Shown piece after piece: positions 303 through 41,392 of a stretch of DNA of 41,392 nucleotides. Position 1 is the first letter of the stretch; the number at the start of each line of letters is the position of its first letter. Source of the DNA: a virus; IMG/VR virus record IMGVR_UViG_3300043667_000015, positions 1 through 41,392 of that record. One strand, 5' to 3'. A program made the translations under genes and the position numbers. The notes beneath the pieces were generated by a model that worked only from the letters and a program-made list of their open reading frames with translations, ran no database searches and had not been told where the DNA came from.

Positions 303-392
303 GGGAGTGTGGATTTCAGGTGCACAACCCGGCCGAGGCGGCGCCCACTGGCGTCCCTCGGCCGGACACCCACATCGCAGCGGATTTGTGAC

Positions 393-1610: not shown

Positions 1611-1616
1611 AGGACG

Positions 1617-2693
1617 GTGGCGCGTACCAGGAAGGCAGCTGCGGCCGATCTCTCGTTGACCCAGGTCGCGACAGACTTCCGGTTCGCGCTCGCCGCCGGC
1701 GGACGCCGGCAGACGACGGTGGGCTGGTACGCGGACATCCTCGATGCTTTCGTTCAGTTCGCCACGGGCGAGCTCGGCCGTGGGCCGCGGCTGGCCGACC
1801 TGACGGTCGACCTCGGTCGGCGTTATGCCGTCTCGCTGTCCGAGCCGGCGAAGTCAGGGGGCAGATCGCGCCGACGTGGCAAGCCATTGAGCCGGGCAAC
1901 GGTGCGTGGTCACCTCAAAGCGCTCAAGGTCTTCGCGGGTTGGCTGCGCCGAGAGGGCTACCTCTCCCGCGACGCACTGGCTTCGCTCGAGGTGCCGAGA
2001 GATGATCGTCGCCTCTTCGCGGTGTTCAGCGACAGCCAGCTCGACGCTCTCCTTCAAGTCGCCGAAGGCGACAGCCTCCGGGCGCGCCGCTGGACGGCCG
2101 TCGTCTGGCTCCTGCTCGACACCGGGCTCCGCTTGAGCGAGCTCACGGGGTTGACGCTCGAGCGGCTCGATCTTGAGTTGGGCAGCGTCCGAGTCGTCGG
2201 CAAGGGCGGCAAGGAGCGCCTCGTACCGATCGGTTCGGCTGCGCTCTTCGCGCTGCGCCGCTACCTCGACCGCCGGGCCGGACCCGCGCGGGGTGCCGTC
2301 TTTCTCGACGACGACGGCCGGCCTCTGAGCCCGACCGCCGTATACAAGGGCATCCGTGGCTTAGGTGCGCGAGCCGGGATCAGCGGTGTCCGCTGCTCGC
2401 CCCACACGTTCCGGCACACCTTCGCGACCCGCTACCTGCTGCTCGGCGGTGACCTGCTGACGCTAGCCCGGCTGCTCGGCCACAGCCCGCACTCGCTCGA
2501 GGTGACGCAGCGATACGTCACCCTGCTCGATGCCGACCTCCGCGCCGCGCACAAGCGCTTCTCGCCGGGCGATGACCTCGCCAGGCTCGGCGGCGTTCGC
2601 CCGGCGAGGCCGCCCCGTCTCATGCCCGGGCGAAGGCCCGCGAGGCGATCGCCAGCCGATCGACCGGCGAGGCCTGCGCGTGTTGGCGCTTGA
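1617..2693 (+). CDS. Tyrosine recombinase (XerC/XerD-like), plus strand
   Basis: This is a 358-residue site-specific recombinase. After an N-terminal SAM-like DNA-binding domain (about 15-115) comes a full catalytic domain: the first Arg in DTGLRLSEL (about 171), Lys in GKGGKERLVP (about 200), H-x-x-R in HTFRHTFA, His in LLGHS and the nucleophilic Tyr in QRYV (about 300). All catalytic positions are present. It starts with GTG at 1617, just after the ATPase stop. Its last 74 bp overlap the end of the convergent recombinase gene. The protein ends in a Pro/Arg-rich tail not needed for catalysis. The lack of an arm-binding domain makes it Xer-like or transposon-type rather than a phage integrase. 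Confidence 0.93.
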   Translation: MARTRKAAAADLSLTQVATDFRFALAAGGRRQTTVGWYADILDAFVQFATGELGRGPRLADLTVDLGRRYAVSLSEPAKSGGRSRRRGKPLSRATVRGHLKALKVFAGWLRREGYLSRDALASLEVPRDDRRLFAVFSDSQLDALLQVAEGDSLRARRWTAVVWLLLDTGLRLSELTGLTLERLDLELGSVRVVGKGGKERLVPIGSAALFALRRYLDRRAGPARGAVFLDDDGRPLSPTAVYKGIRGLGARAGISGVRCSPHTFRHTFATRYLLLGGDLLTLARLLGHSPHSLEVTQRYVTLLDADLRAAHKRFSPGDDLARLGGVRPARPPRLMPGRRPARRSPADRPARPARVGA

Positions 2694-3531
2694 CCTCGTC
2701 GGTGTCGAGGTTGACGTAGCGGCGAACCATGTCGAGGGTCGTATGGCCGAGGATCTTCTGGAGGCTGAACAGGTCGCCGCCGTTGAGCAGGTAGAGCTTG
2801 GCGAAGGTGTGGCGGAAGGTGTGCGGGTTGGTCCGCACGCCGTCGAGCCCGGCCCGCCCGCCGAGCCGGCGGAGGGTGTGCTGGATCGCCGCCGAGGTGA
2901 GCGGCCGCCCGTCGCGGGCGAGGAAGACGTGATCGACGTCGCGTCCGATCGGCCGCGGGCGGCTGTGGGCGAGGTAGTCCGGCAGGCGGGCCTCCGTCAC
3001 GGTCCCGAGGGGAACGAGCCGCTCCTTGCCGCCCTTGCCTCGGACCCGGAGGTAGCCGTCGGGGAGCAGATCACCAATCCGCAGACCGGCCAGCTCGGAC
3101 AGCCGCAGCCCCGTGTCGAGGAGGAGCGCGATGATCAGCCGATCGCGGCGCGAGGCGACCGCGAGGAGTCGCTCCAGCTCGACCGGTCCGAGCGTCGCGA
3201 TGAGCCGCGACGGCACCTGCGGACGGGGCAGACGCCGAAGCGGATCCTCGGCGACGAGACCCTCCGCGGCGCACCAGGCAGAGAACGCCCGGAGACCGCG
3301 GACAAAACCTGCGACCGACGATGGCGCGAGCCCGGCCTCCTGGAGCGAGACGACGAATGCCCGCGCCTCGGCGATGCTCACCGCGCTGAGCGCCGGGTCG
3401 GCGCCGCGGCCCGTCCGGTAGGCGGTGAACCGCTCGCCGATCATGCGATACCAGTCGAGCGTCTTGGGCGACAGGCCTCGCGCTCGACCCGAGACGAGGA
3501 AGTCGTCCAGGCCATCGGCGAGGGTAAACAT
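2620..3531 (-). CDS. Tyrosine recombinase (XerC/XerD-like), minus strand
   Basis: This is a 303-residue recombinase with all catalytic residues: Arg in DTGLRLSEL, Lys in GKGGKERLVP, HTFRHTFA, ILGHT and Tyr in RRYV. The catalytic core strongly resembles the convergent neighbour, so the pair are probably paralogues. I choose the ATG at 3531 because an AGGTG ribosome-binding sequence sits 5-9 bases upstream. A longer frame to 3660 exists, but its extra residues are mostly translated DNA repeats. The gene lies outside the prophage, 174 bp from attL, and its 3' end overlaps the other recombinase by 74 bp. It could act with the neighbour on the repeats upstream of its start. Confidence 0.92.
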   Translation of the reverse strand: MFTLADGLDDFLVSGRARGLSPKTLDWYRMIGERFTAYRTGRGADPALSAVSIAEARAFVVSLQEAGLAPSSVAGFVRGLRAFSAWCAAEGLVAEDPLRRLPRPQVPSRLIATLGPVELERLLAVASRRDRLIIALLLDTGLRLSELAGLRIGDLLPDGYLRVRGKGGKERLVPLGTVTEARLPDYLAHSRPRPIGRDVDHVFLARDGRPLTSAAIQHTLRRLGGRAGLDGVRTNPHTFRHTFAKLYLLNGGDLFSLQKILGHTTLDMVRRYVNLDTDEVKRQHAQASPVDRLAIASRAFARA

Positions 3532-3533
3532 CG

Positions 3534-3606
3534 CACCTGACGCCGAGTCAGGTGACCGACCGGCCTGACGAGTCAGGTGACCGGACGGGGAACGAGTCAG
3601 GTGACC
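3534..3606. repeat. Three 14-bp direct repeats with internal dyads upstream of a recombinase gene
   Basis: CGAGTCAGGTGACC occurs exactly at 3544-3557, 3569-3582 and 3593-3606, with spacings of 25 and 24 bp (about 2.3 helical turns). The first copy also forms an inverted repeat CACCTGAC-5 bp-GTCAGGTG (3534-3541/3547-3554) that includes the ribosome-binding region of the recombinase gene. The second forms CCTGAC-GA-GTCAGG (3564-3577). This looks like an operator or recombinase-binding array for the gene starting at 3531. Confidence 0.7.
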
Positions 3607-3661
3607 ACGAGCCATTGGAACGCCTCCACGCTGGTCGGCGATTCCATGCTCGAACCACATT

Positions 3662-3695: not shown

Positions 3696-3704
3696 GGTGT
3701 GGGG

Positions 3705-3755
3705 TTGGCTGGCGAGGAAGGATTCGAACCTTCGATCTCCTGATCCAGAGTCAGG
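3705..3755. repeat. attL: 51-bp core repeat with orphan tRNA-Gln 3' fragment
   Basis: The sequence is identical to 40564-40614. On the minus strand it spells the anticodon stem-loop, variable region, T arm, 3' acceptor strand and CCA of tRNA-Gln. It diverges from the tRNA after TCAGG at 3755. Integration therefore split the original gene here, and the phage supplied a replacement 3' part at the other end. Confidence 0.97.
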
Positions 3756-4178: not shown

Positions 4179-4423
4179 CAGTCGCCCTGGACCGGCTTGC
4201 CGCGTTCTGGGTTCGCGAAGCCCGCGAGCGCGCCGGCGATACCCTGCATCGCGCCCGCCTCGGCCGCGGCCATCAGCACCTTGTGGTGGTCCTCCGTCGG
4301 CCCGAGCTCCTCCGCGATCGGGACGATGATGCTCAGGTAGCGCGACCCAGGGTTGTCGCGGACGGCCTGCCGATATTGCTCGGCGACGCGCTGCGCCCCG
4401 TGCTCCAAATCCTCGGGCCTCAT
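4178..4423 (-). CDS. Small helical protein between integrase and HNH
   Basis: This 81-residue protein starts MRPEDLEHGAQRVAEQYRQ and is predicted mostly helical, with an Ala/Gly-rich second half. No family is recognised. It is coupled by ATGA overlaps to the integrase upstream and the HNH gene downstream, which supports real translation. A role near integration or excision can only be guessed from position. Confidence 0.65.
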   Translation of the reverse strand: MRPEDLEHGAQRVAEQYRQAVRDNPGSRYLSIIVPIAEELGPTEDHHKVLMAAAEAGAMQGIAGALAGFANPERGKPVQGD

Positions 4424-5610
4424 CGTGCGTCCTCCTCGCGCTCCGGGGCGGCCGTCAGGGCCGCGGCCATGGCCTCGGCGGTGACGGTCGAGGTCGGTCG
4501 GACGTGGGTGTAGCGACCGCTCGTCTTCATGTCCGTGTGACCGAGGAGCTCCATGATGTAGGCCCGGTCGAGGCCGGCCTCCATGAGGATCGACGCCGTC
4601 GAGTGACGAAGGTCGTGGACCCGGAGCCGGGGCAGCTTGGCCGCGGCCAGGTGGCGGTGGAGGGCATGGCTCAGGGTCGAGCCGGCCAGCGGCCCGCCGG
4701 TCCCCGTCGTGAAGACGAGCTGACTGGCCTTCCATTCCTCCCTCCGCCAGGCGGCGCCGGCGCGGATCCGCTCCTCGCGCTGACGCTGCTTGTGGGCCCG
4801 CAGCTCGTCGGCGACCAGGGCGGGCAGGCGGATCGTCCGCTTGGATCCGGATGTCTTCGGCAGGCCGAACGTGTAGGCGTCGCCGGGGAGGTAGGTCAGG
4901 CTGCGGGTGATCCGGAGCGTGCTCGCCTCGAGGTCGACCTGGGGCCAGCCGAGGCCGGTGAGCTCGCCCCGCCGGGCGCCGGTCGAGACGGCCGTCAGCC
5001 ACAAGGCGTAGAGGCGATCGCCGCGGATGGACACGAGGAACGCCCGGGCCTGCTCGGCGTTCAGGACCGCGGGCTCTACCGTCGTCGACGTCGGCCGGCG
5101 GACATCGCTGGCGACGTTCCGCTCGAGGATCCGGTCGCGGACGGCGAGGCCGAGAGCGATCCGGAGGACCGTCACGGCGTAGGCCGCCGTCCGGGATCCG
5201 CCTGTTCGCCGCTTCGGGTGGCCCGGCACGGGCGCGCCCTGCTCGATCGACCGCACCGCGCGACGCACGTCCGGCGCCGCCAAATGGATCAACGACACGT
5301 GGCCGAGGGCGGGGATCAGGTGGCGGTTGACGGTGAAGGTGTACGACTCGAGCGTCCGCGGACGCAGCCCCGTCAGGCCCTCGACCCAGCTGGCCAGGTA
5401 GGCCGCTACCGTGAGTCGCTCGTCGATCGGACCGAGGCCGATCCGCTCCCGCCGGCGGAGCTCGTCAAGCTTGTCGAGGACCTCGTCACTCGACGACCCG
5501 TAGAGGGAGCGGCGCTTTCGATGCTCGCGGCTTCCGCGCCCGACCTGGACGTCCAGCCTCCAGGTCCCGTCGGGGCGCTGATAGGGTCTCGGTTCGGGTC
5601 TCCTCGCCAT
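4420..5610 (-). CDS. int: Phage tyrosine integrase
   Basis: This is a 396-residue integrase that would recombine attP with the 3' end of tRNA-Gln. The order is: an N-terminal arm-binding beta domain (YQRPDGTWRLDVQVG, 10-24), a SAM-like core-binding domain (about 65-165) and a catalytic domain with R213 (TGARRGEL), K252, H332-x-x-R335 (HDLRHS), H358 (LLGHT) and nucleophile Y367 (RYTHV). All active-site residues are present. It lies under 700 bp from attL, reads towards it, and its first 125 bp overlap the excisionase gene in another frame. It is the penultimate part of the long early operon, so its expression should be tied to early transcription unless there is an internal promoter. Confidence 0.97.
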   Translation of the reverse strand: MARRPEPRPYQRPDGTWRLDVQVGRGSREHRKRRSLYGSSSDEVLDKLDELRRRERIGLGPIDERLTVAAYLASWVEGLTGLRPRTLESYTFTVNRHLIPALGHVSLIHLAAPDVRRAVRSIEQGAPVPGHPKRRTGGSRTAAYAVTVLRIALGLAVRDRILERNVASDVRRPTSTTVEPAVLNAEQARAFLVSIRGDRLYALWLTAVSTGARRGELTGLGWPQVDLEASTLRITRSLTYLPGDAYTFGLPKTSGSKRTIRLPALVADELRAHKQRQREERIRAGAAWRREEWKASQLVFTTGTGGPLAGSTLSHALHRHLAAAKLPRLRVHDLRHSTASILMEAGLDRAYIMELLGHTDMKTSGRYTHVRPTSTVTAEAMAAALTAAPEREEDAR

Positions 5611-8862: not shown

Positions 8863-9125
8863 TAGGCGGGCTCGCTCTCAGCGGTAGGAAGAACCGGGCC
8901 GACGCTCTCGAGCCGGATGATTGGCTCCGCGTGGTCGGCCGGGACGTCGACCGGCTTTGCGATGAGGTCCAGCGGGTCGAACAGCCAGTCGGGCACGTCG
9001 GCGACGAAGGCGACGCGGATCGCCCCGCTACCACGTGGCGTGGCCCCTCGAGCCTGCGTCAGCTTCGTCGCCGAGACGGTCCCGTACTTCCGCTCGAATT
9101 GGACGAAGAACTTGACCTTCGCCAT
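8862..9125 (-). CDS. Hypothetical protein downstream of parB-like gene, 87 aa
   Basis: The protein starts MAKVKFFVQFERKYGTVSATK and then shows strand-rich segments (AIRVAFVADVPDWLFDPLDL). The ATG at 9125 overlaps the parB-like stop (ATGA). No family is recognised. Translational coupling suggests a partner of the ParB-like protein. Confidence 0.6.
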   Translation of the reverse strand: MAKVKFFVQFERKYGTVSATKLTQARGATPRGSGAIRVAFVADVPDWLFDPLDLIAKPVDVPADHAEPIIRLESVGPVLPTAESEPA

Positions 9126-11143
9126 CAGGAAGCCGCCGGCGCCGGCCGGGCGGGCGGGACCTCGCCGCCCTGATGAACGCATCCCGGGACGTGGTTGGAG
9201 CCGACGCAGACGAGCGGGAGCGGCTCAGTGAGCTCGTCGAGCTGGCCGGCGGTCTCCGTGGCCACCGCGGCGACCGATGGCGCCTCCACGACTAGGGCAG
9301 GCGCCCTCCAGACCCGCGCCTTCGTGTCGGCGACGAGGTCGGCGAGCATCACGTGGTGACGGGCCGCGATCGGGCGCCCAGGCGTGTAGTCGGGCGGAAC
9401 GAGATCGACGATCGCCGGGTCCTGCCCCGGATAGACGATCGCGATGACCACGTACTCGCGATGCCCGCCAATGACGACCGGGTCCTGGAGGCGGACGTCC
9501 TTCCCGAGGCGCTTCCGGTCCGGCTTCACGGCCGCGGGCTTCGGCGCCTCCTCACCGCGTCCATGGGCGAGGAGCCACGCGGCGATCGCCGCCCGCACGC
9601 CGGGCCCGCCGGCGAACCCGCCCACGAAGTCCACGATCGCCTTGGACTGGATCCCGGCGAGATCCTCGTCGGGGATCCCCTCGAGGAGGGTCCAGGGCGC
9701 GTCGTCGAGGTCGAGCAGGCCCGCGGTCTCGCCCTGGAGGTACTCGTCGGCGAGCTCCTGGTCGATCTCGCCCTCGAGGAGCGCGTACAGCGTCAGACGG
9801 CGCGCCAGCGGCGTCGGTGGCTGTTCGGCCAGGATGTCCACGATCCCCGCCCGGAGGCGCCCTGCGGCCGCCTGCTCGGCCTCACGGGCGACGCGGCGCT
9901 CCTCGTTGCCCTTGGCCACGTCGGCCTTCCACTGCGCGTCGAGCGCGGCCTTCCGGGCCGCCTTGTGGTCGCTCGAGTTGCACGCTGGGTGGAGGGTGAC
10001 GTGGCCGTTGTCGTTGTACGGGATCGCCAGCCGCCAGACGCCGGCGCAGCCGCACGAGCCGGCCTGGGCAATGACGTCGACGCCGCCCCCGTTGGTCACC
10101 TTCCAGCCGTCGGCGGTCAGGGCCTTCTTGACCTCGTCGCCGGTGTAGAAGTCCTCGACGCAGATCGTCGACGCGTCCCGCTGGGCGACCTTGTCGAGCA
10201 TCGCGATCGCTTCGGCGGCTCGCTTGGCGACACCGGCCTCGTGCTCGCGGATCCGCTTCCCGCTCTCCTTGACGTGCTGCGCCTGCTGCTCCGTCGCCTT
10301 CGCCGACAGACCGCGCTCGACGACCGTCTCGAGCAGGCCTGCCTGCAGGTCGACGTCGACAGCGGCGATCGCCCGGGCGTGGGTGGCGCTCAGGCTGCCG
10401 GCCCGGACGGCCTCTTGGACGACGGGCGCCGTCTCGAGCAGGCGAAGCGTGTTGGTGACCCAGGACCGATCCTTCTGGACGAGCTTGGCGATGTCCGCGT
10501 GGGTCATCGAGGGCCGCGCGGCCGCGATCGCCGACATCGCCTTGGCGATGTCGAGCGGATTCAGGTCGGCGCGCTGGACGTTCTCGACCAGCTGGACGAC
10601 AGAGCGGCCGATGCCGGTCTCGCCGAGCTCGAGGCGAGGATCGACGATCGCCCGGATCTTGGTCTCGCCGGCGAGCGTGGCCGCTGCGAGCCGCCGATGG
10701 CCGGCGAGAACGCGGTACCCGGTTGGCTTCTCGTCGAGCCCTGCGCCGTAGAGGGCGGTGACGGTGATCGGCTCGAGGAGCCCGTGATCGCGGATCGATC
10801 CGGCCATCTCGGCGATCTGACCGACATCTTCGCGGACGTTGGTCGCGACCTCGATCTGATCAATCGGGATCTCGCGCAGCTGTCCCATCGGCCCGGCGAG
10901 CCCAAAGGCGATCTCGGGCTCCTCTTCGGCCTCGCCACGCTCGACTGCGCGCTGGAGCTCGACCGGAATCCCGAGATCCTCAAGCTCGTCGTCGGTCGGG
11001 CCGGCCTCAACCTCGGCGTCTGGGTGAGCCATGGCGAGGTGCCCGTTCAGGCTACCGGCCGTCATGGCCGAGTAGGTGCAGTGCGGGCATCGGTGCTTGC
11101 CCGGCTTCCCCTTGAGGGTTTCCTGGGAAACGTCGACCGCCAT
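9125..11143 (-). CDS. Large ParB-like CTPase/DNA-binding protein with N-terminal zinc finger
   Basis: This is a 672-residue protein, about twice the usual ParB length. A C2H2 finger comes first (C19, C22, H35, H40). Then follows a canonical ParB N-domain: HGLLEPITV near 120, the GHRR motif at 148-151 and ENVQR at 187-191, which in ParB bind CTP and close the clamp. A ParB helix-turn-helix follows at about 213-236 (MTHADIAKLVQKDRSWVTNT) with the usual LSATHARAI helix. The C-terminal 350 residues hold a Cys-bearing segment (CGCAGVW) and unrecognised domains instead of the normal short dimerisation domain. No ParA is seen in the window. A parS-like dyad lies in codons 5-9 of its own gene, suggesting autoregulation. 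Confidence 0.85.
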   Translation of the reverse strand: MAVDVSQETLKGKPGKHRCPHCTYSAMTAGSLNGHLAMAHPDAEVEAGPTDDELEDLGIPVELQRAVERGEAEEEPEIAFGLAGPMGQLREIPIDQIEVATNVREDVGQIAEMAGSIRDHGLLEPITVTALYGAGLDEKPTGYRVLAGHRRLAAATLAGETKIRAIVDPRLELGETGIGRSVVQLVENVQRADLNPLDIAKAMSAIAAARPSMTHADIAKLVQKDRSWVTNTLRLLETAPVVQEAVRAGSLSATHARAIAAVDVDLQAGLLETVVERGLSAKATEQQAQHVKESGKRIREHEAGVAKRAAEAIAMLDKVAQRDASTICVEDFYTGDEVKKALTADGWKVTNGGGVDVIAQAGSCGCAGVWRLAIPYNDNGHVTLHPACNSSDHKAARKAALDAQWKADVAKGNEERRVAREAEQAAAGRLRAGIVDILAEQPPTPLARRLTLYALLEGEIDQELADEYLQGETAGLLDLDDAPWTLLEGIPDEDLAGIQSKAIVDFVGGFAGGPGVRAAIAAWLLAHGRGEEAPKPAAVKPDRKRLGKDVRLQDPVVIGGHREYVVIAIVYPGQDPAIVDLVPPDYTPGRPIAARHHVMLADLVADTKARVWRAPALVVEAPSVAAVATETAGQLDELTEPLPLVCVGSNHVPGCVHQGGEVPPARPAPAAS
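11118..11131. promoter_or_regulatory. parS/NBS-like dyad 2, inside the start of the parB-like gene
   Basis: GTTTCCTGGGAAAC is a perfect inverted repeat of GTTTC around CTGG. It occupies codons 5-9 of the ParB-like gene, an ideal place for autoregulation or spreading initiation. Confidence 0.6.
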
Positions 11144-11459: not shown

Positions 11460-12590
11460 TCAGAGCTCTCCTCCGTGATCGGCGACCATCGATCGCCATG
11501 CTTGGGTGAATGCGTCGGCGCCCATCGAGCGGGCCGCGACGGCGATGGATTGGGCCGCGGCCGCGCTGACGTTGTCGCGGGCTCCGGGGCCGAAGGCGAG
11601 GTCGAGTCCGGGCCCGATCACGCCCTTGAGCGGGGCGAAGATCTCGACAAGGGCCTCGTGCTGGATCTCCGTCTTCGGGCCCGTCATCGACGACGTCGCC
11701 ACGCCCTCGCGGAGCCGCTCGAGCAGGCTCGGCGCTTCGCCGGCGGTGGCGAGGATCGCGTCGTCGATGAGCTCCTCGACCGGTGTCGGCGCGCGGAAGT
11801 CGGACGTCGCCGGAGGTGGCGTGACCGGGATCGGTGGTCGGCCCGGGCCCAGGAGCGGCTGAGCGAGTCCGGCCTGGAGCAGTGCGGCCTGCTGGCCGCC
11901 CTCGAGCAGACCGGCGAAGCCGCCGGGGACGCGGATCGCAAGGACGTTGAATTCCTTCTTGCCCTGGCCGGGCCGCTTCTTCGATCGCGGATCGATCCAT
12001 AGCTCGGCCGGGACCGTGCGGCCCGTGCCCAGGGCGGTTGCGACGAGCAGCTCCGCCGTTCCGGCGAGCTCGATCGCGGCGTAGAAGGAGTGCGAGACGG
12101 CGAGCCAGATCCCGAGGTCGGGGAGGCGCGGCAGGATGACGGGCAGCCGGGTCGTCGGCTTGCAGGCCTGTCCCTTGCCGGCGAGCTCGACGCGTGTCGC
12201 GACGTCGTCGGGGCACAGGCAGGGCTTCCGCGTCAGCTGCTCCGTAACACCGTCGCAGCGCCGCTTGCAGCCGCCGCCGGCGTAGAGCTCCATCCACTGG
12301 CTGATCGGGTTGCCGGGCGGGATGACGATGTCCAGGGTGTCGGTGGCGGTCGTGAGCTGCCAGGCGTCGCCGTCGGGCGCGTCTGGCCAGGCCTCGACCG
12401 TCCCGCCGTAGATTTCCGCGGCCGCCTCGAGCAGGTCCCGGCGCGACTTCACCGCCGTCATCCGGAAGGTCGCCAGGCGGGCCGGGCGCTTGAACGTCTT
12501 GCCGTCCTTGGTGCCCTCGACCTGCTCGCCGGTCCGGATCCGCCCGAGCTCCCGGAATTGGCGCTGCATCACGATCGGTGAGATCGGCAT
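11460..12590 (-). CDS. phiC31 gp3-like protein (recombination-directionality-factor family)
   Basis: This is a 376-residue protein. Its N-terminal 200 residues match the pattern I recall for phiC31 gp3-like proteins of actinophages: ELGRIRTGEQV, LLEAAAEIYGGTVEAW, TLDIVIPPGNPISQWMELY, GGGCKRRCDGV with PCLCP, CKPTTRLPVILPRLPDLGIW and YYAAIELAGTAELL-type segments. In phiC31, gp3 switches a serine integrase to excision. This phage carries a tyrosine integrase, so here the protein more likely does its other, probably ancestral, DNA-metabolism job. The paired Cys (C109/C113 and C122/C124 region) look zinc-binding. The C-terminal 170 residues are an extension with no match. Family assignment is from memory of the motif pattern. 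Confidence 0.62.
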   Translation of the reverse strand: MPISPIVMQRQFRELGRIRTGEQVEGTKDGKTFKRPARLATFRMTAVKSRRDLLEAAAEIYGGTVEAWPDAPDGDAWQLTTATDTLDIVIPPGNPISQWMELYAGGGCKRRCDGVTEQLTRKPCLCPDDVATRVELAGKGQACKPTTRLPVILPRLPDLGIWLAVSHSFYAAIELAGTAELLVATALGTGRTVPAELWIDPRSKKRPGQGKKEFNVLAIRVPGGFAGLLEGGQQAALLQAGLAQPLLGPGRPPIPVTPPPATSDFRAPTPVEELIDDAILATAGEAPSLLERLREGVATSSMTGPKTEIQHEALVEIFAPLKGVIGPGLDLAFGPGARDNVSAAAAQSIAVAARSMGADAFTQAWRSMVADHGGEL

Positions 12591-31982: not shown

Positions 31983-32251
31983 GCGGTGGGCTCCTCATCC
32001 TCTGCGAACCCGAGCCCGCCGCCGTCGGCGTCGAGGGCCTCGATTTGACGCCTGCAGCGCCAGCACCAGGCCTCGTCGTCGTCGGGATCCCGGAACGACT
32101 CTTCGCAGGTGCAGAAGGCGGGGTTGGTCAGGCCACGAATGCGGTCGCTCGCGGCGCGGGCCAGGGCTGCAAGGCCCCGTGCACGGCCATGGCCGTCGCG
32201 ATCGCCCCGTCGATCTTCCGAGCTGAATCCTTGAGCTTCGTAATCCGCCAT
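31979..32251 (-). CDS. Small zinc protein overlapping terminase, 90 aa
   Basis: The gene starts 124 bp inside the terminase gene in another frame and extends to the portal start. The non-overlapping half contains FCTCEESFRDPDDDEAWCWR with a further Cys, a compact C-x-C...C-x2-C zinc motif. The overlapping half is Arg/Gly-rich and could be non-native. The real start may lie further in, but no alternative ATG or GTG is seen. Confidence 0.55.
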   Translation of the reverse strand: MADYEAQGFSSEDRRGDRDGHGRARGLAALARAASDRIRGLTNPAFCTCEESFRDPDDDEAWCWRCRRQIEALDADGGGLGFAEDEEPTA

Positions 32252-33690
32252 CCGCTCTCACCTCGGTTCCGGCCGACAACGTTGGACAAGTGCCGGGCGA
32301 GAACCGGATCGCCGTCGTGCTCGAGGCGCTTGGTGACGACCAGGCCGTAGAGGTCGGTCGCGGCCGGGACCATCTGGCTGTCGTTCTGGGCCATGGAGAC
32401 CATGACGAGGCCCTCGGATTCGAGGATCGACGCCATCGCCTTGAACCCCCACGGGTCGTAGGCGAAGACAGGCCCGCCGGCGCCGCGGCGCTGAACCTTC
32501 CGGGCGAGCGCCGGGAACATGTTTCGCAGGGAACGTAGGTAGTTGAGGATCTCGTTCACGTCGGCCTCTTCGCCCGTCCGCGGATCCGGGGCGAAGAACC
32601 GGGCCCGAACGACGACGTGGTCCTCGGAGCTCGGGATCTCGGGGTTGCGCCGCCCGATCGGCATCGGGATCCGCTGGGCGACCGTCACGCACGTCGTGTC
32701 GTCGCTGACGCCGAAGTCGATCCCGACCGCGATCGGGCGCTTCCGATCGAGCCCGTGGAGGAGATCGTTCGGATCGTGGTCCTTGCTCGAGCAGTCGGCC
32801 CAGGTCCCGAGGGGAAGCCAGTCCTCGACCCCGGAGGGCCACTGGTTGAGGTGGAGGCGGCGGAAGTCGGTCAGCCGCATCGTCGGCTTCCGGAGCTCGC
32901 GCCGGAGATATTGCTCGGTGATCCAGGAGGCCGGGTTGGACAGGGCCCACACGGCCGGATCCATGGGGTCGGCGTCGGCGGCCGCCCCGTACCAGTACAT
33001 CAGGAAGCCGGCGTCGCGATCGCGGACGATCGTCAGGCCCGGGCGGTGCTCGACGACATCGACTCGAGCCAGGGCGGCGCTGTAGATCTGGCCGAGGATC
33101 TGCTCCTCGGCGATCCCGGCGGTGGTGATCGTGATGGTGATCGGCTGCTCGCGCGCGCCGCCGGCCGAGGTGAGGGCCGTGTAGAGCTCGGGCGACTTGT
33201 GGGCCCACAGCTCGTCGATGATGTTGCCCGACGGGTTGAGACCGTGCTGCAGGGCGCCGTCCGACGAGAGGACCCGGAGGATCCCGCCGTTCTGGGGGCA
33301 ATCGATGTAGTCGCGCCGCGGGAGGACGAAGTCCTGGAGGCCCGGGCTCGCGGCCACGAACCGCTTCTGCTGGCGGAAGACGATCGTCGCCTGCTTGAGC
33401 GACGCCGCCGCGATGTAGACCTCGGGCTCGTTCTCGCCGTCGGCGGTCAGGAGGTACACGCCGCCGGCCGATGCGATCGTCGACTTGCCGTTCTTCCTCG
33501 GGATCCCGAGGATGACCTCCTGGTACACCCGGAGCCCGGTCAGCGAGTCGAGCTCGAGCGCCTCGTCCCAGAACTCCTGCTGCCAATCCTCGAAGATGAG
33601 GGGCTGGCCGGCCCACCGGCCCTTGGTCTGGCGGATGTAGCGCTGACTGAAGGCAGCGAGTCGAGGACCGTCAGTCAGGATCGGCGTCAT
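32128..33690 (-). CDS. Terminase large subunit
   Basis: This is a 520-residue packaging motor and nuclease. The ATPase has a Walker A-like GIPRKNGKS (62-70) and a Walker B NIIDELWA with D159-E160. The RNase H-like nuclease has IAVGIDFGVSDDT (first Asp near 310) and later Asp/Glu in FAYDPWGFKAM. The start overlaps the small terminase by 20 bp. Confidence 0.94.
   Translation of the reverse strand: MTPILTDGPRLAAFSQRYIRQTKGRWAGQPLIFEDWQQEFWDEALELDSLTGLRVYQEVILGIPRKNGKSTIASAGGVYLLTADGENEPEVYIAAASLKQATIVFRQQKRFVAASPGLQDFVLPRRDYIDCPQNGGILRVLSSDGALQHGLNPSGNIIDELWAHKSPELYTALTSAGGAREQPITITITTAGIAEEQILGQIYSAALARVDVVEHRPGLTIVRDRDAGFLMYWYGAAADADPMDPAVWALSNPASWITEQYLRRELRKPTMRLTDFRRLHLNQWPSGVEDWLPLGTWADCSSKDHDPNDLLHGLDRKRPIAVGIDFGVSDDTTCVTVAQRIPMPIGRRNPEIPSSEDHVVVRARFFAPDPRTGEEADVNEILNYLRSLRNMFPALARKVQRRGAGGPVFAYDPWGFKAMASILESEGLVMVSMAQNDSQMVPAATDLYGLVVTKRLEHDGDPVLARHLSNVVGRNRGESGWRITKLKDSARKIDGAIATAMAVHGALQPWPAPRATAFVA
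32521..32534. promoter_or_regulatory. parS-like dyad 6, inside the terminase gene
   Basis: GTTTCGCAGGGAAC differs from the consensus GTTTCYCRGGRAAC at one position (G for Y). It lies in the large-terminase coding region, preceded by AT as in four of the six sites. Confidence 0.5.
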
Positions 33691-34348
33691 CGCCGACGAC
33701 CCGGAGGCGGCCGCGCGGCGGGAGCTGGCGGGCGAGCTCGCCAGCCATGCCGCCCTCGTGCGGCGACCGAAGCGACCCGGCGCCGGCGTCGCCGGCCAGC
33801 TTCACCCGGCTCCCCGGCCCGATCCCGAGGACGCCGGCGAGGAGGCGGAACTCGGTCATCGCGCCCTTCTCGATCGCGATCGCCGGATGGGCGACGCGGC
33901 CCTGGCTGTTGGTGCCAGGAGGGGCCAGGAGCCCGCCGCTCGAGGCGACGCGACTGATCTCGCCGTCGGTGGCCTCGCACCACAGGCACTTGCCCGGATG
34001 GGCCTTGGTCTTGCGAAACTCCGGATCCGCGTTCCGAGCCGCGATGCAGGCGAGGATGGCGGTGTGCTCGGCCTTCATGGCCGCCCGCGCCTGGCGGACC
34101 CTCGCGAGGGCCTGGGCGGCGAGCTCGACGATCGTGAGGTCGACGCGATCGAGCATCCCGCCCGCGACGAGCGGGGCGATCAAGTCGCGCCAGGCCCGGC
34201 CCTCCATCGGGGTGAGGTTCGGTGGCGGCTTGACCGAGTCGAGCTCGTCCGGGTTGATCCGGCCGCCGATCAGGATCGCGGCCCGCGGCGGGCGGTGGTC
34301 GGGGTAGCCCTCGAGCCGTCGCTGCTCTTCCGACTTGGCGACGGTCAT
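33671..34348 (-). CDS. Terminase small subunit (P27 family)
   Basis: This is a 225-residue protein. PPPNLTPMEGRAWRDLIAPL and the later VAHPAIAIEKGAMTEFRLLA, then LGIGPGS, match P27-type small terminases. An internal segment (GKCLWCEATDGE) inserts a CxxC pair between the two halves, an unusual addition that may bind zinc. It would recognise the packaging site. The start ATG is at 34348 with GGGAG upstream. Confidence 0.82.
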   Translation of the reverse strand: MTVAKSEEQRRLEGYPDHRPPRAAILIGGRINPDELDSVKPPPNLTPMEGRAWRDLIAPLVAGGMLDRVDLTIVELAAQALARVRQARAAMKAEHTAILACIAARNADPEFRKTKAHPGKCLWCEATDGEISRVASSGGLLAPPGTNSQGRVAHPAIAIEKGAMTEFRLLAGVLGIGPGSRVKLAGDAGAGSLRSPHEGGMAGELARQLPPRGRLRVVGDDADPD

Positions 34349-35253: not shown

Positions 35254-35904
35254 CTACACGACAGCGGCAAGACCCTCGAGGCGCTGGGAGTACAGGCGGG
35301 CCGGCGGCTCGTCGTCGTAGCGGTCCCAGAGCCGCTCGAGCGCGCCGACCAGGTAGGGCCAGCGGACGGGCTCGATGATCCCCATGCTCCGGCCGGCCGC
35401 GCTCCAGTCGCCGTCCATCGAGGCGGTCCGGAAGAGCATCCGGGCCATGAACGGGTACGGGTCCGTGTCGGCACCGCGGCCGGCCAGGGCGGCCAGGGCG
35501 GCCCGCATCGGGAAGCGGAAGGCGGTCTCGGCCATGGTCGTGCCGGCCTCGGTCAGACGGGCGAGCTCGGTCTCGTCGCGGGGATCGCCCTCGAGGTAGG
35601 CCCGGAACGGATCCGCCGTGCGCGGCGTGCCGATGAGGGAGCCGCCGACCAGGTCGCGGGCCGTCGATAGAACGGCGCCGGTCCGAGGGTCGAGGCTGGC
35701 CAACGACTCGCCCCGACGGGCAGGCGTCCCGACGAACACCCCGCTGGCGTGGATCTGCTCAGGGATCTCGGCCCGGAAGCCGGACAGGAACCAGCCGAGC
35801 AGGTCGCGCGGCTTCGTCGCCCTGCGGCGGATGCTCGCCGCGTGCTCGCCGGCGTGGGGTCGGGCGAGGCGGGCGCGGGCTACCTCGACGTCGCGCCTGC
35901 TCAC
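35254..35904 (-). CDS. Hypothetical protein, 216 aa
   Basis: It starts with GTG at 35904 (GTGA overlap with the holin-like gene). The sequence includes RDLLGWFLSGFRAEIPEQIH, VLSTARDLVGGSLIGTPRTA and PYLVGALERLWDRYDDEPPA; it looks like a helical globular protein. It is the last gene of the lysis block. No family is recognised. Confidence 0.58.
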   Translation of the reverse strand: MSRRDVEVARARLARPHAGEHAASIRRRATKPRDLLGWFLSGFRAEIPEQIHASGVFVGTPARRGESLASLDPRTGAVLSTARDLVGGSLIGTPRTADPFRAYLEGDPRDETELARLTEAGTTMAETAFRFPMRAALAALAGRGADTDPYPFMARMLFRTASMDGDWSAAGRSMGIIEPVRWPYLVGALERLWDRYDDEPPARLYSQRLEGLAAVV

Positions 35905-36185
35905 AGGGTCACTGCGCGGTCGGGCTGGCCGGCCGGCGTCGTCACCGTGACGTCCGTGCCTTCGGGCAGGACGGGGTTGGCGAGCGACGTGACCGCGGAC
36001 TCGGTGGCGAACGCCAGCGCGGCGGCGGTGAAGCCGCTCACGGCGCCGACCTGGATGCCATTCCAGCCGAGGCCGAATGCCGTCCCCATGGCGATCCCGG
36101 CGACGATCAACGCCTGGGCCCGGACCGGCCACTTCTTGATGAGGGCCCACATCCCACGGAGGAAGCGCTTGGCGCCGGATCGCAT
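35901..36185 (-). CDS. Holin-like membrane protein, 94 aa
   Basis: A basic N-terminus (MRSGAKRFLRGMWALIKKWP) is followed by two hydrophobic Gly/Ala-rich segments (AQALIVAGIAMGTAFGLGWN and VGAVSGFTAAALAFATESAV). The C-terminal Thr/Val tail is soluble. Size, topology and proximity to the amidase fit a holin or holin partner. Confidence 0.65.
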   Translation of the reverse strand: MRSGAKRFLRGMWALIKKWPVRAQALIVAGIAMGTAFGLGWNGIQVGAVSGFTAAALAFATESAVTSLANPVLPEGTDVTVTTPAGQPDRAVTL

Positions 36186-36400
36186 CAGGGGGCCTCCTGC
36201 CGGGCGATGGCCGCGTTGGCCCAGAACATCGCCTCCTCGAGCTTGGTCATCGCCAGGCTCTTCTCGCGCCCCTCGGGCAGCCGATCCTGAAGGTCCAGGG
36301 CCAGCTTCTTGATCCGCTCCCGGGTCAAGCGGTGCGCCTCGGCCCGGGCGGTGTCGGGCACGTGATGATCGAAGCGTCGAGCGATGTCGCCTGGATACAT
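36185..36400 (-). CDS. acb2: Acb2/Tad1-hairpin anti-CBASS sponge protein
   Basis: This 71-residue protein has the hallmark helical hairpin of Acb2: RAEAHRLTRERIKKLALDLQ, then GREKSLAMTKLEEAMFWANA and AIARQ. In characterised members, Acb2 hexamers sequester cyclic oligonucleotides made by CBASS (and by some Thoeris-type systems), blocking abortive infection. The start at 36400 overlaps the amidase stop (TGATG). Its place in the lysis/late block, rather than the early genes, would mean expression late or from virion-proximal transcripts. Assignment is by motif memory. Confidence 0.86.
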   Translation of the reverse strand: MYPGDIARRFDHHVPDTARAEAHRLTRERIKKLALDLQDRLPEGREKSLAMTKLEEAMFWANAAIARQEAP

Positions 36401-37293
36401 CAGAGCGCCTCCGCCGCGGCGATCATCGCGGCCCGGACGAGCTCGTGCTCGGCGGCCCGGGCATCGGAGACCGCCTGGGTGCAGTCGGCCTTCGACACGA
36501 CCGGCCGGACGTTCACGGCGGCATTGGCGAAGATGGCCAGGAGCAGGTCCGGCGCAGGATCGGCGCGGGTCCAGACGATGGCCCGGAGGCCCGTGCCTCC
36601 TTCGGACGTCGAGACGAACGGACTGACGACGTCCTTCCGAGCCGCCGGCGCGGTGAGGCGGGGCGATCCGTCGAGGTTCAGGATCTTGGTCCCCTGGGGG
36701 ATGTCCAGGACCACCGCGGTGGCGCTCTGGACGTCGATCTCGGTCATCGGTTCCTCCGTTGTGAACAGGCCGTGGCCGCCGAGCCCGGCGAAGATCGCCT
36801 TCATGTTCGGGCTGACGCCGGGGCAGCCCTTCGGTGACTGGTCGTGGTGGCCAGTCGCTCCTCGAATCGTCGCGAACATGTCGCGCATTTCGAGGCCCCA
36901 CTCGATCGTTGAGCGAACCTGCGCGTCCGTCGGCCCGTCGGCCCGGCGGCCAGCGAGCTCGGCGCTGACGGTCCAGGCGTTCGGGTCGGGCCAGTGCGAG
37001 CCGAGCACGTCCCGCAGGTGGTGACCGCCGTAGTAGCCGTACTCGCCGGCCCGGTCGTCGGGGTTGAGGTTGCCCGAGGCGTGGGCCCAATCGAGCATCT
37101 GGACGCGCTTGCCGGTCGAGAGGATCGCGACGTTGCACGACACGCCGTTGACCCGCCTGGCCCACTGGTGGAGATCCTCGCCGCTATGTCGGGCGAGGTA
37201 CTCGGGCAGGCCATCTCCGCCTTCGCTCATGTGGAGCGAGATCCCGAGCGTCCCGTCCCTCGGGCCGTAGTCGATGCCCTGGACGAACGTCAT
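36400..37293 (-). CDS. Endolysin: N-acetylmuramoyl-L-alanine amidase
   Basis: This is a 297-residue lysin. Residues 1-160 form an amidase_2/PGRP fold: ISLHMSEG with H21, VSAELAG, then GATGHHDQSP with H149/H150 and KGCPG with C157, the expected zinc ligands. The C-terminal 120 residues are a separate domain (TEIDVQSATAVVLDIPQGTK, RLTAPAARKDVVSPFVSTSE) with no recognised family, possibly a wall-binding domain. Neighbours are holin-like proteins. Confidence 0.88.
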   Translation of the reverse strand: MTFVQGIDYGPRDGTLGISLHMSEGGDGLPEYLARHSGEDLHQWARRVNGVSCNVAILSTGKRVQMLDWAHASGNLNPDDRAGEYGYYGGHHLRDVLGSHWPDPNAWTVSAELAGRRADGPTDAQVRSTIEWGLEMRDMFATIRGATGHHDQSPKGCPGVSPNMKAIFAGLGGHGLFTTEEPMTEIDVQSATAVVLDIPQGTKILNLDGSPRLTAPAARKDVVSPFVSTSEGGTGLRAIVWTRADPAPDLLLAIFANAAVNVRPVVSKADCTQAVSDARAAEHELVRAAMIAAAEAL

Positions 37294-37697
37294 GCCGCGA
37301 GCTCGGCGACCAGGCCCTCGGCCACCAACGTCTCGATCGTCCGGCGCGTTCGTCGATCGAGGAAGCTGTTCAGCGCGAGCCCGCCCGCGACCGACATGAT
37401 GATGACGAGGTACGGCGTCAGGGGGGTGTCGCCCGGGCGCCCGAGGGCCGGGATGATGACCACGATCAGGGCGGCGACGACGTAGAGCAGGACCGCCTCG
37501 CGCCGAACATTGGCTCGCGCCTGGACCAGCCTGGCCCGGAGCAGGGTCGGGCTGACCGGTGGCGTGGTCGCGTCGCCGGCGCCGTCAACGGTGGCCCGCC
37601 AGCCCTGCCAGGCGTCCGCGAGGTTGCCGAAGATGACGCCGGCGGCGAACAGGTTGATCGCCAGCCAGGTGCCCTCGACCGGGTTGATGAAGATCAT
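37290..37697 (-). CDS. Multi-pass membrane protein (lysis block), 135 aa
   Basis: Three hydrophobic segments can be seen: WLAINLFAAGVIFGNLADAW, VLLYVVAALIVVIIPALG and YLVIIMSVAGGLALNSFL. The middle loop is Arg-rich. Coupling to the endolysin by 4-bp overlap suggests a holin, antiholin or spanin-like role. Confidence 0.65.
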   Translation of the reverse strand: MIFINPVEGTWLAINLFAAGVIFGNLADAWQGWRATVDGAGDATTPPVSPTLLRARLVQARANVRREAVLLYVVAALIVVIIPALGRPGDTPLTPYLVIIMSVAGGLALNSFLDRRTRRTIETLVAEGLVAELAA

Positions 37698-37885
37698 CGG
37701 CGGGGGCTCCGGCGGAGGTCCGCACGATCGGCCTGGAGGACGTCGACCTGGATGTCGATCGCCCGCTGGCGCTTGGCGATGCGGTCGAGCCGCTCGGCGA
37801 CGAGCTCCTGCTCGTCGGTCATGGGGTGCGGGGCCGGCGGCGTGAGCCCCAGCATGTGACGGAGCGCCGCCATCAGCCTACCCAT
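37694..37885 (-). CDS. Small coiled-coil protein, 63 aa
   Basis: Sequence MGRLMAALRHMLGLTPPAPH is followed by a helical segment (LVAERLDRIAKRQRAIDIQV, DVLQADRADLRRS) with heptad spacing. It overlaps both neighbours. The family is unknown; a spanin or holin regulator is possible. Confidence 0.55.
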   Translation of the reverse strand: MGRLMAALRHMLGLTPPAPHPMTDEQELVAERLDRIAKRQRAIDIQVDVLQADRADLRRSPRR

Positions 37886-38069
37886 CGCCGAGCGACTTCC
37901 GGACCGCGACCGTCGTCGCCTTGTCGGCGAGGTCCGTGCCCATCATGGCGAGGGTCCGCCAGTAGTCGCGGTCCTTCTTGAGGTCGCTGTAGATCTTCGC
38001 CGCGGCCGTGGTCAGAGCGGTGGCCAGGGCGCCGATCACCGCGATGACGACCCCGGGGTCGACCGTCAT
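37878..38069 (-). CDS. Small single-pass membrane protein, holin-like, 63 aa
   Basis: One transmembrane helix (VVIAVIGALATALTTAAAKI) precedes a charged soluble part (YSDLKKDRDYWRTLAMMGTD). Small size and location next to lysis genes fit a holin. The start is ATG at 38069. Confidence 0.6.
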   Translation of the reverse strand: MTVDPGVVIAVIGALATALTTAAAKIYSDLKKDRDYWRTLAMMGTDLADKATTVAVRKSLGDG

Positions 38070-38101: not shown

Positions 38102-38500
38102 TCAGCCGACCCGCCGAAGTGAGGACGCCGGGGTCACGGCAACGCCCTGCTCGGGGTCATCGGCCGGATCGCCAGACGGCGAATCGCCGACGCTGCTGCC
38201 CGGCGTCCTCGTCATCCGGTCGAAGAGCGCATCGATCGTTCGCCGGATCAGGCGGTGCCGCTCGCGCAGGAGTTCCTCGACCTCGTCGTCACCGGGGAGC
38301 CGGAGCCATCCGAGGGCGGTGAAGGCCTCAATCGCGCCGCTCGCCCCGAGCTTGCGGTAGATCGCGCTCAGGTGGTTCTTCACCGTACTCAGGCTGATGC
38401 CGAGCTCGTCGGCGACGCCCTGGTGGTGGCCCGTCCGGCCGTAGCAGGCGAGGAGCTGGGCCTCCCGCACCGTCAGCGGTCGGCCGACGGGGGGGCTCAT
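38102..38500 (-). CDS. LuxR-type HTH regulator A, 132 aa
   Basis: The first 65 residues are a GerE/LuxR helix-turn-helix: LTVREAQLLACYGRTGHHQG, VADELGISLSTVKNHLSAIY, then RKLGASGAIEAF. There is no receiver domain. The C-terminal half is charged and low complexity. A perfect 16-bp palindrome lies 122 bp upstream. It may activate late genes. Confidence 0.83.
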   Translation of the reverse strand: MSPPVGRPLTVREAQLLACYGRTGHHQGVADELGISLSTVKNHLSAIYRKLGASGAIEAFTALGWLRLPGDDEVEELLRERHRLIRRTIDALFDRMTRTPGSSVGDSPSGDPADDPEQGVAVTPASSLRRVG

Positions 38501-40550: not shown

Positions 40551-40563
40551 TGGTGATCGGGGA

Positions 40564-40614
40564 TTGGCTGGCGAGGAAGGATTCGAACCTTCGATCTCCT
40601 GATCCAGAGTCAGG
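40564..40614. repeat. attR: 51-bp core repeat inside intact tRNA-Gln
   Basis: The sequence is identical to 3705-3755. It covers the tRNA from CCA through the anticodon stem, so the integrated phage end restores a complete tRNA. Confidence 0.97.
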
Positions 40615-40639
40615 CGCCTTACCGCTTGGCCACTCGCCA
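40565..40639 (-). tRNA. tRNA-Gln (anticodon CTG)
   Basis: The 75-nt gene folds as a full cloverleaf: acceptor TGGCGAG/CTCGCCA, D stem GCC/GGC, anticodon stem CCTGA/TCAGG with loop CTCTGGA (anticodon CTG), T stem GAAGG/CCTTC with loop TTCGAAT, and an encoded CCA. It is the integration target of the prophage; its 3' two-thirds come from the phage. Confidence 0.96.
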
Positions 40640-40883: not shown

Positions 40884-40889
40884 TTGTGC

Positions 40890-41392
40890 GTGAAAAGGAT
40901 CGGATTCCTGTCGTTCGGACACTGGTCGGCCTCGCCCCACTCGCAGGTGCGGTCCGCGTCGGACGCCCTGATCCAGTCGATCGAGCTCGCCGAGGCGGTT
41001 GAGGACCTCGGTGCCGACGGCGCCTACTTCAGGGTCCACCACTTCGCCCAGCAGCTGGCGTCGCCGTTTCCGCTCCTCGCGGCGATCGGCGCCCGAACGA
41101 AGCGCATCGAGATCGGGACGGCCGTCATCGACATGCGCTACGAGAACCCGCTGTACATGGTCGAGGATGCCGGCGCCGCCGACCTCATTGCAGGCGGTCG
41201 ACTCCAGTTGGGGATCAGCCGGGGCTCGCCGGAGCAGGTCATCGATGGCTTCCGCTACTTCGGCCACGCGCCCGCCGACGGCACGACCGACGCGGACATG
41301 GCGCGTGACCACACGCAAGTCTTCCTCCAGGCCCTGTCCGGGATCGGCTTCGCCGAGCCGAACCCCGCGCCGATGTTCCCGAACCCTCAGGG
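40890..41392 (+). CDS. LLM-class flavin-dependent oxidoreductase (partial, N-terminus)
   Basis: Translation from GTG 40890 stays open to the window end (about 167 codons): MKRIGFLSFGHWSASPHSQV, then QSIELAEAVEDLGADGAYFR and VHHFAQQLASPFPLLAAIGA, followed by TKRIEIGTAVIDMRYENPLY and DLIAGGRLQLGISRGSPEQV. This is the bacterial luciferase-like TIM-barrel pattern, with the conserved E/A-x-L-G-D-G and G-R-L-x-L-G-x-x-R-G loops that bind FMN or F420. It belongs to the host chromosome. It lacks a ribosome-binding site, in keeping with a leaderless message. Confidence 0.88.
   Translation, partial: MKRIGFLSFGHWSASPHSQVRSASDALIQSIELAEAVEDLGADGAYFRVHHFAQQLASPFPLLAAIGARTKRIEIGTAVIDMRYENPLYMVEDAGAADLIAGGRLQLGISRGSPEQVIDGFRYFGHAPADGTTDADMARDHTQVFLQALSGIGFAEPNPAPMFPNPQ

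What the first reader, a model, noticed from the sequence alone, without database searches (positions are those of the whole stretch)
36185..36400. Acb2/Tad1-type anti-CBASS sponge in the lysis block
The REKSLAxTKLEEAxxWANAxIAR pattern is diagnostic of Acb2-like proteins that trap cyclic oligonucleotides. It implies that the host lineage uses CBASS or similar signalling defences. Its location between endolysin and holin-like genes is odd for a protein needed early.
Basis: partly seen in the sequence, partly recalled or inferred. Interest (0 to 1): 0.62.

Follow-up and report, generated by a model that had tools for sequence, protein, structure and literature searches.

The report
Phage anti-CBASS-like sponge in lysis operon
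A prophage, probably from a Chloroflexota bacterium, carries between its cell-lysis genes a small protein of a known family that soaks up the chemical alarm signals bacteria use against viruses; it is a good, fairly ordinary new member of that family, and several unrelated phages turn out to keep it in the same place.

Summary
Window 36400..36185 (-) encodes a 71-aa protein that matches Pfam PF24729 "Acb2/Tad1, hairpin domain" (65 bits, cut-off 27, E=7e-18), PDB 9ptq "Acb2 homolog 43" (E=9e-10) and, by profile, the Tad1 hairpin (E=8e-5). T4 Vs.4 (Acb2) comes up only marginally. The gene has its own GGAGG site and is joined by TGATG overlaps to the endolysin upstream and a weakly hydrophobic 94-aa protein downstream. 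The Vs.4 residues needed for the hexamer are kept (L33, A50, A57, A61, plus T52). The Vs.4 dinucleotide-stacking residues F82 and R79 are not, whereas R45, E46 and N62 match Tad1. I therefore infer a hairpin sponge, with cyclic trinucleotides the likeliest ligand; binding is untested. The window is a prophage in tRNA-Gln; its host flank points to Chloroflexota. CBASS cyclases occur in 11 of 177 genomes of that class, three sampled with an adjacent effector gene; the two nearest relatives showed none. The "odd" position is not unique: four of 20 sampled annotated phages keep the gene beside lysin or holin. In three of 55 metagenomic loci a Tad2 sponge gene lies directly upstream (0 of 690 other genes; p=0.002). 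New member of a known kind; modest interest.

The parts
36185..36400 (-). acb2-like gene, 71-aa PF24729 hairpin protein (P0001)
36215..36268 (-). codons of the conserved stretch R45-N62 (REKSLAMTKLEEAMFWAN) in the second long helix
   Evidence: sequence; conservation; model helix 45-67
36400..37293 (-). endolysin (amidase type), stop overlaps the acb2 start as TGATG
35901..36185 (-). 94-aa weakly hydrophobic protein, start overlaps the acb2 stop as TGATG; possible holin/membrane protein
   Evidence: no family match
37290..37697 (-). 135-aa protein with transmembrane segments, holin candidate
37878..38069 (-). 63-aa protein with one N-terminal hydrophobic segment, upstream in the same block
33671..34348 (-). 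terminase small subunit, downstream in the same direction
32128..33690 (-). terminase large subunit
40560..40614 (.). att repeat inside intact tRNA-Gln(CTG) 40565-40639
3701..3755 (.). att repeat, tRNA-Gln 3' half; other prophage end
4420..5610 (-). tyrosine integrase just inside the left att site
40884..41390 (+). host flank: partial oxidoreductase (LLM-class by my own reading) whose nearest relatives are two Chloroflexota MAGs (89% aa identity)

Best explanation
The gene encodes a hairpin-only cyclic-nucleotide sponge of the Acb2/Tad1 type. Two long antiparallel helices and a short N-terminal helix are predicted; protomers are expected to form a hexamer through the small-residue face of the second helix and to hold host immune nucleotides without cutting them, so that effectors such as CBASS nucleases or membrane proteins stay off. 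Because R45, E46, T52 and N62 match the Tad1 hairpin while the Vs.4 dinucleotide-stacking residues F82/R79 are missing, I expect cyclic trinucleotides (cA3, cAAG) to be the main ligand, with dinucleotide binding variable. It is made together with the endolysin and just before the packaging genes, so it should appear in the lytic phase after induction, when CBASS triggers are produced, and not in the quiet lysogen. Shown: gene, family, predicted fold, conserved interface residues, overlap with the lysis genes, prophage nature. Inferred: hexamer, ligand, CBASS as the target, timing.
For: PF24729 E=7e-18. PDB 9ptq 'Acb2 homolog 43' E=9e-10. Profile of 52 relatives hits Tad1 hairpin chains at E=8e-5 and Vs.4 at E=0.18; hhalign to Vs.4 probability 69%, E=4e-5 over 21 columns. 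Model pLDDT 87, helices 3-10, 17-40, 45-67; the best-ranked named viral matches by fold are Acb2/Tad1 hairpin proteins (best E=1.4e-4), and the best PDB rank is Vs.4, though not significant (E=2.7). Vs.4 residues whose mutation abolishes the hexamer (L29, A66, A73, A77; PMC10097602) align with L33, A50, A57, A61, and T68 (T68M lowers binding; PMC12657230) with T52. K23 aligns with R27, invariant also in 15 phage members found without pattern bias. A Tad2 sponge gene lies directly upstream in 3 of 55 independent loci, 0 of 690 other genes, Fisher p=0.0024; one locus has two tandem copies. CBASS operons exist in the inferred host class. A staphylococcal CBASS cyclase is triggered by RNA from terminase genes (PMC10686824 abstract), i.e. 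late genes.
Against: No binding data for this protein or, in the papers held, for phrog_1454 members. Vs.4 ligand residues R79, F82 and S74 align with A63, A66 and M58. The alignment of the N-terminal loop (Y8/H11 of Vs.4) is ambiguous. The two nearest host relatives show no CD-NTase. Conservation in A1 is partly built in, because loci were fetched with conserved peptides. Tad2 co-location was noticed after the fact.
Confidence: 0.78

Rival explanations
1. It is a sponge aimed mainly at Thoeris (gcADPR or related TIR products) or at type III CRISPR cyclic oligoadenylates, not at CBASS.
For: The profile is nearer to the Tad1 hairpin than to Vs.4. One of the two nearest host relatives (G002) has two ThsB_TIR matches and no CD-NTase. 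ThsB_TIR occurs in 15 and Cas10-like palms over cut-off in 3 of 177 genomes. Tad2 neighbours recur.
Against: The Tad1 gcADPR pocket also uses N-terminal beta-strand loops (PMC12043709) that a 71-aa hairpin lacks. PF08937 covers TIR proteins beyond Thoeris; no ThsA partner was checked.
Confidence: 0.12
2. It is a lysis-cassette protein (antiholin, lysis timer or chaperone of the membrane protein) that only resembles the hairpin family.
For: Overlapping reading frames with the endolysin and the 94-aa protein; lysin/holin neighbours in prophi91-3, Jace, SPI1 and KimJongPhill.
Against: Family match well above the curated cut-off. Most relatives lie outside lysis genes, next to replication, tRNA, terminase or capsid genes. 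No hydrophobic segment.
Confidence: 0.04
3. It drains a housekeeping cyclic dinucleotide such as c-di-AMP late in infection, which weakens turgor or wall control and so helps lysis, with immune evasion secondary.
For: Recurrent lysis-cassette position. T4 Acb2 binds 2',3'-c-di-AMP (PMC12657218). The effect of c-di-AMP on turgor and wall is my general knowledge.
Against: CDN-stacking residues of Vs.4 are missing; most relatives are not in lysis cassettes; no test of c-di-AMP in this host.
Confidence: 0.05

Closest known systems
PF24729 Acb2_Tad1_hairpin / phrog_1454 (members in mycobacterio-, gordonia-, streptomyces- and paenibacillus phages, mostly annotated 'hypothetical protein')
   Same: Full-length match over residues 12-67; same size, same R..E..T..EEA..W.N signature; up to 62% identity to metagenomic members
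   Different: Nothing beyond sequence divergence; the host appears to be Chloroflexota, and no Chloroflexota phage stood out in the phage collection tally
PDB 9ptq 'Acb2 homolog 43'
   Same: 58-residue alignment, PEGREKS and TKLEEAMF stretches shared
   Different: Lacks the WANA end of the motif; no paper naming the entry was found in the library
Acb2 of phage T4 (Vs.4)
   Same: Three-helix layout; hexamer residues and T68 conserved
   Different: About 20 residues longer at the hairpin turn; F82/R79/S74 not kept; the T4 gene lies between vs.3 and vs.5, away from the endolysin
Tad1 C-terminal hairpin (8kbe-8kbh, 7uav)
   Same: RE-A-T-EEA-W-N signature in register
   Different: No N-terminal beta-sheet domain here, hence not a Tad1
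Statler gp57, putative Acb2 in a Microbacterium phage (PMC13348362)
   Same: A published call of a putative Acb2 in an actinophage
   Different: Also untested; not compared residue by residue here

Membership tests
PF24729 Acb2/Tad1 hairpin family | Score above the curated cut-off over most of the profile | tested here: met
   65 bits vs 27, profile 2-58 of 58
PF24729 Acb2/Tad1 hairpin family | Antiparallel two-helix hairpin | tested here: met
   AlphaFold2 model, helices 17-40 and 45-67, block pLDDT mostly 96-98; BFVD fold matches
Acb2 (anti-CBASS 2) | Short N-terminal helix plus two long helices, no other domain | tested here: met
   H3-10, H17-40, H45-67 in 71 aa; N-terminal helix pLDDT only about 63
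Acb2 (anti-CBASS 2) | Hexamer with interface residues L29, A66, A73, A77 of Vs.4 | tested here: inconclusive
   Residues conserved; oligomer state not testable here
Acb2 (anti-CBASS 2) | CDN-pocket residues Y8, H11, K23, R79, F82 of Vs.4 | tested here: inconclusive
   K23 to R27 conserved type; Y8 region aromatic or His but ambiguous; R79 and F82 not kept
Acb2 (anti-CBASS 2) | Binds and releases cyclic di/trinucleotides; restores phage growth under CBASS | not testable with these tools
   needs ITC and plaque assays
Tad1 (Thoeris anti-defence 1) | N-terminal antiparallel beta-sheet before the hairpin | tested here: not met
   71-aa protein, no strands; domain layout from PMC12043709
CBASS present in host lineage | CD-NTase with effector in genomes of the host group | tested here: met
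   11/177 SMODS matches; HNH-SAVED, PDDEXK-SAVED and 2TM effectors adjacent in three; class-level only, none in G001/G002

The most novel reading that the evidence does not exclude
A sponge gene placed in lysis cassettes by several unrelated phages is a recurrent design: it is expressed only in the late lytic phase, which protects against late CBASS triggers, keeps the lysogen from setting off Panoptes-type guards, and may also drain cyclic dinucleotides to ease lysis.
Probability: 0.12. Interest if true: 0.55.

Novelty: new member of a known kind. Interest (0 to 1): 0.3.

Why it matters
It extends the Acb2/Tad1 hairpin family to a prophage whose host appears to be Chloroflexota. It gives a specific ligand prediction (trinucleotide rather than dinucleotide) for a large phage family (phrog_1454, over 400 phage records matched) still mostly annotated as hypothetical. 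The repeated lysis-cassette position and the repeated Tad2-Acb2 gene pairs are simple, checkable patterns that bear on when sponges are needed and which signals they cover together.

Tried and rejected
TerL as a host marker: no relative in genome contigs. IMG/VR relatives with 74-75% identical TerL (L082, L083) showed no acb2-like gene in the stretch held, but both contigs are partial. Foldseek against PDB: Vs.4 ranks first but E=2.7, not significant alone. PADLOC and NCBIfam give no match to the protein. Promoter/terminator scan uninformative. Lysis adjacency as a strong enrichment: 4 of 20 sampled annotated phages; I judge the expectation to be around 1 but did not compute it, and in the 55 metagenomic loci only a few neighbours hit endolysin families, so I claim recurrence, not enrichment. 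PaMx33 Acb2 residues could not be compared, because the papers are not held.

Full report
What is there. The ORF at 36400..36185 (-) encodes 71 aa. It starts seven bases after a GGAGG; its ATG overlaps the stop of the endolysin gene (TGATG), and its own stop overlaps the ATG of the next gene in the same way. Codon usage marks it as coding (GC3 89%). PF24729 "Acb2/Tad1, hairpin domain" matches at 7e-18, 65 bits against a cut-off of 27; phrog_1454, function unknown, at 5e-27; PDB 9ptq "Acb2 homolog 43" at 9e-10.

Family. IMG/VR gave 172 confirmed relatives, of which 80 were kept, and the phage collection 404 records, mainly Mycobacterium, Gordonia, Paenibacillus and Streptomyces phages, nearly all named hypothetical protein in the rows listed. 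A 52-row alignment shows invariant F10, H13, R27, R45, E46, E56, W60, N62, A63. Because those loci were fetched with conserved peptides, I repeated the count on 15 phage proteins found by tblastn plus the window: H13 and R27 stay invariant, F10, E46, T52, W60, N62 and A63 are 15 of 16, R45 is 13 of 16, and E56 only 9 of 16. The profile finds Tad1 hairpins at 8e-5 and Vs.4 at 0.18. The R-E-A-T-EEA-W-N pattern is shared in register with Tad1; Vs.4 keeps only A, T, E, A and W.

Fold and residues. The AlphaFold2 model has a short helix and a two-helix hairpin (pLDDT 87). In BFVD the top-ranked named hits are Acb2/Tad1 hairpin proteins. In T4 Vs.4, L29, A66, A73 and A77 are needed for the hexamer and Y8, H11, K23, R79, F82 contact cGAMP (PMC10097602). 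The hexamer residues and T68 correspond to L33, A50, A57, A61 and T52; K23 to R27; R79 and F82 to alanines. [quoted passage not shown] From this I infer a kept oligomer and trinucleotide site with an altered dinucleotide site.

Setting. The window is a prophage. A 55-bp, 98% repeat lies at 3701-3755 and 40560-40614, inside tRNA-Gln, with an integrase at 4420-5610. The order on the minus strand from the right is small genes, LuxR-type HTH, membrane proteins, endolysin, acb2, 94-aa protein, HNH, terminases, portal, capsid, tail. The right host flank encodes an oxidoreductase whose nearest relatives are two Chloroflexota MAGs at 89% (then 84% or less, mostly in other phyla), 83-85% at DNA level. 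The tRNA-Gln matches two Chloroflexota MAGs at 83-89% over full length and a third at 100% over 47 nt, against at most 84% over a shorter stretch in an actinobacterium. Host: probably Chloroflexota, not proven.

Host defence. In the class of that MAG (177 held genomes) 11 have a SMODS nucleotidyltransferase; three sampled ones sit beside an HNH-SAVED, a PDDEXK-SAVED and a 2TM effector, so CBASS is present in the class. ThsB-type TIR genes are in 15 and Cas10-like palms over cut-off in 3. The two nearest relatives have no SMODS match. Only one of the 177 carries a PF24729 match, below cut-off.

Position. I sampled 20 annotated phages. In four the homologue touches lysis genes: prophi91-3 (lysin A, lysin B, homologue, holin), Jace (lysin A, homologue, membrane protein), SPI1 (lysin, holin, homologue), KimJongPhill (homologue, endolysin). 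L005 and L025 add metagenomic cases. Elsewhere it sits near terminase (Ibantik, Aminay, Whitty), DNA metabolism, tRNAs or capsid genes. The position is therefore a recurring minority layout, not an oddity, and I do not claim statistical enrichment. Since a staphylococcal CBASS cyclase senses RNA from terminase genes (PMC10686824, abstract), and the review reports Acb2 active on induction rather than in the lysogen (PMC12043709), a late operon is a sensible place.

Association. Three independent loci (L031, L035, L065) have a Tad2-like gene (PF11195; placed by motif) directly upstream of the homologue, and none of 690 other genes in the 55 loci carries the Tad2 motif (Fisher p=0.0024); L049 has two tandem copies. 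This supports a role in sequestering nucleotide signals.

Verdict. A solid new member of the Acb2/Tad1 hairpin family, most likely a cyclic-oligonucleotide sponge; ligand and target untested.

Noticed in passing
window 3701-3755 and 40560-40614: Prophage ends: 55-bp repeat in tRNA-Gln(CTG), one tRNA copy intact; host DNA appears to be present on both sides of the window.
   Followed up: yes
window 309-3660: Left flank outside the att site holds two more tyrosine recombinases (1617-2693 +, 2620-3660 -) and an AAA ATPase (309-1610), possibly another mobile element beside the prophage.
   Followed up: no
L031:5741-5998, L035:2255-2476, L065:5570-5974: Tad2-like sponge genes directly upstream of Acb2-like genes; two of the three overlap the Acb2-like gene by 4 bases.
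   Followed up: partly
L049:5956-6462: Two tandem Acb2-like genes of the same family.
   Followed up: no
L184:2992-3198 and phage records NC_055029, MG727698, NC_028837: Acb2-like proteins of Paenibacillus and Brevibacillus phages are annotated as phosphomannomutase, which looks like a propagated annotation error for a roughly 68-aa hairpin protein.
   Followed up: no
L171, L172, L174: CBASS operons in Chloroflexota-class genomes: cyclase with HNH-SAVED; two cyclases in a row behind a 2TM effector; cyclase with PDDEXK-SAVED.
   Followed up: partly
L169 (G002:C1:5810-5857): A 48-nt 3' tRNA-Gln fragment in a Chloroflexota MAG, perhaps the scar or end of another element that uses the same integration site.
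   Followed up: no
window 9125-11143 and 11460-12590: A 672-aa ParB-like protein and a Gp3-like recombination directionality factor in the same prophage, although the integrase is of the tyrosine type.
   Followed up: no
window 38102-38500: 132-aa LuxR-type HTH protein just upstream of the lysis block, a candidate late regulator.
   Followed up: no
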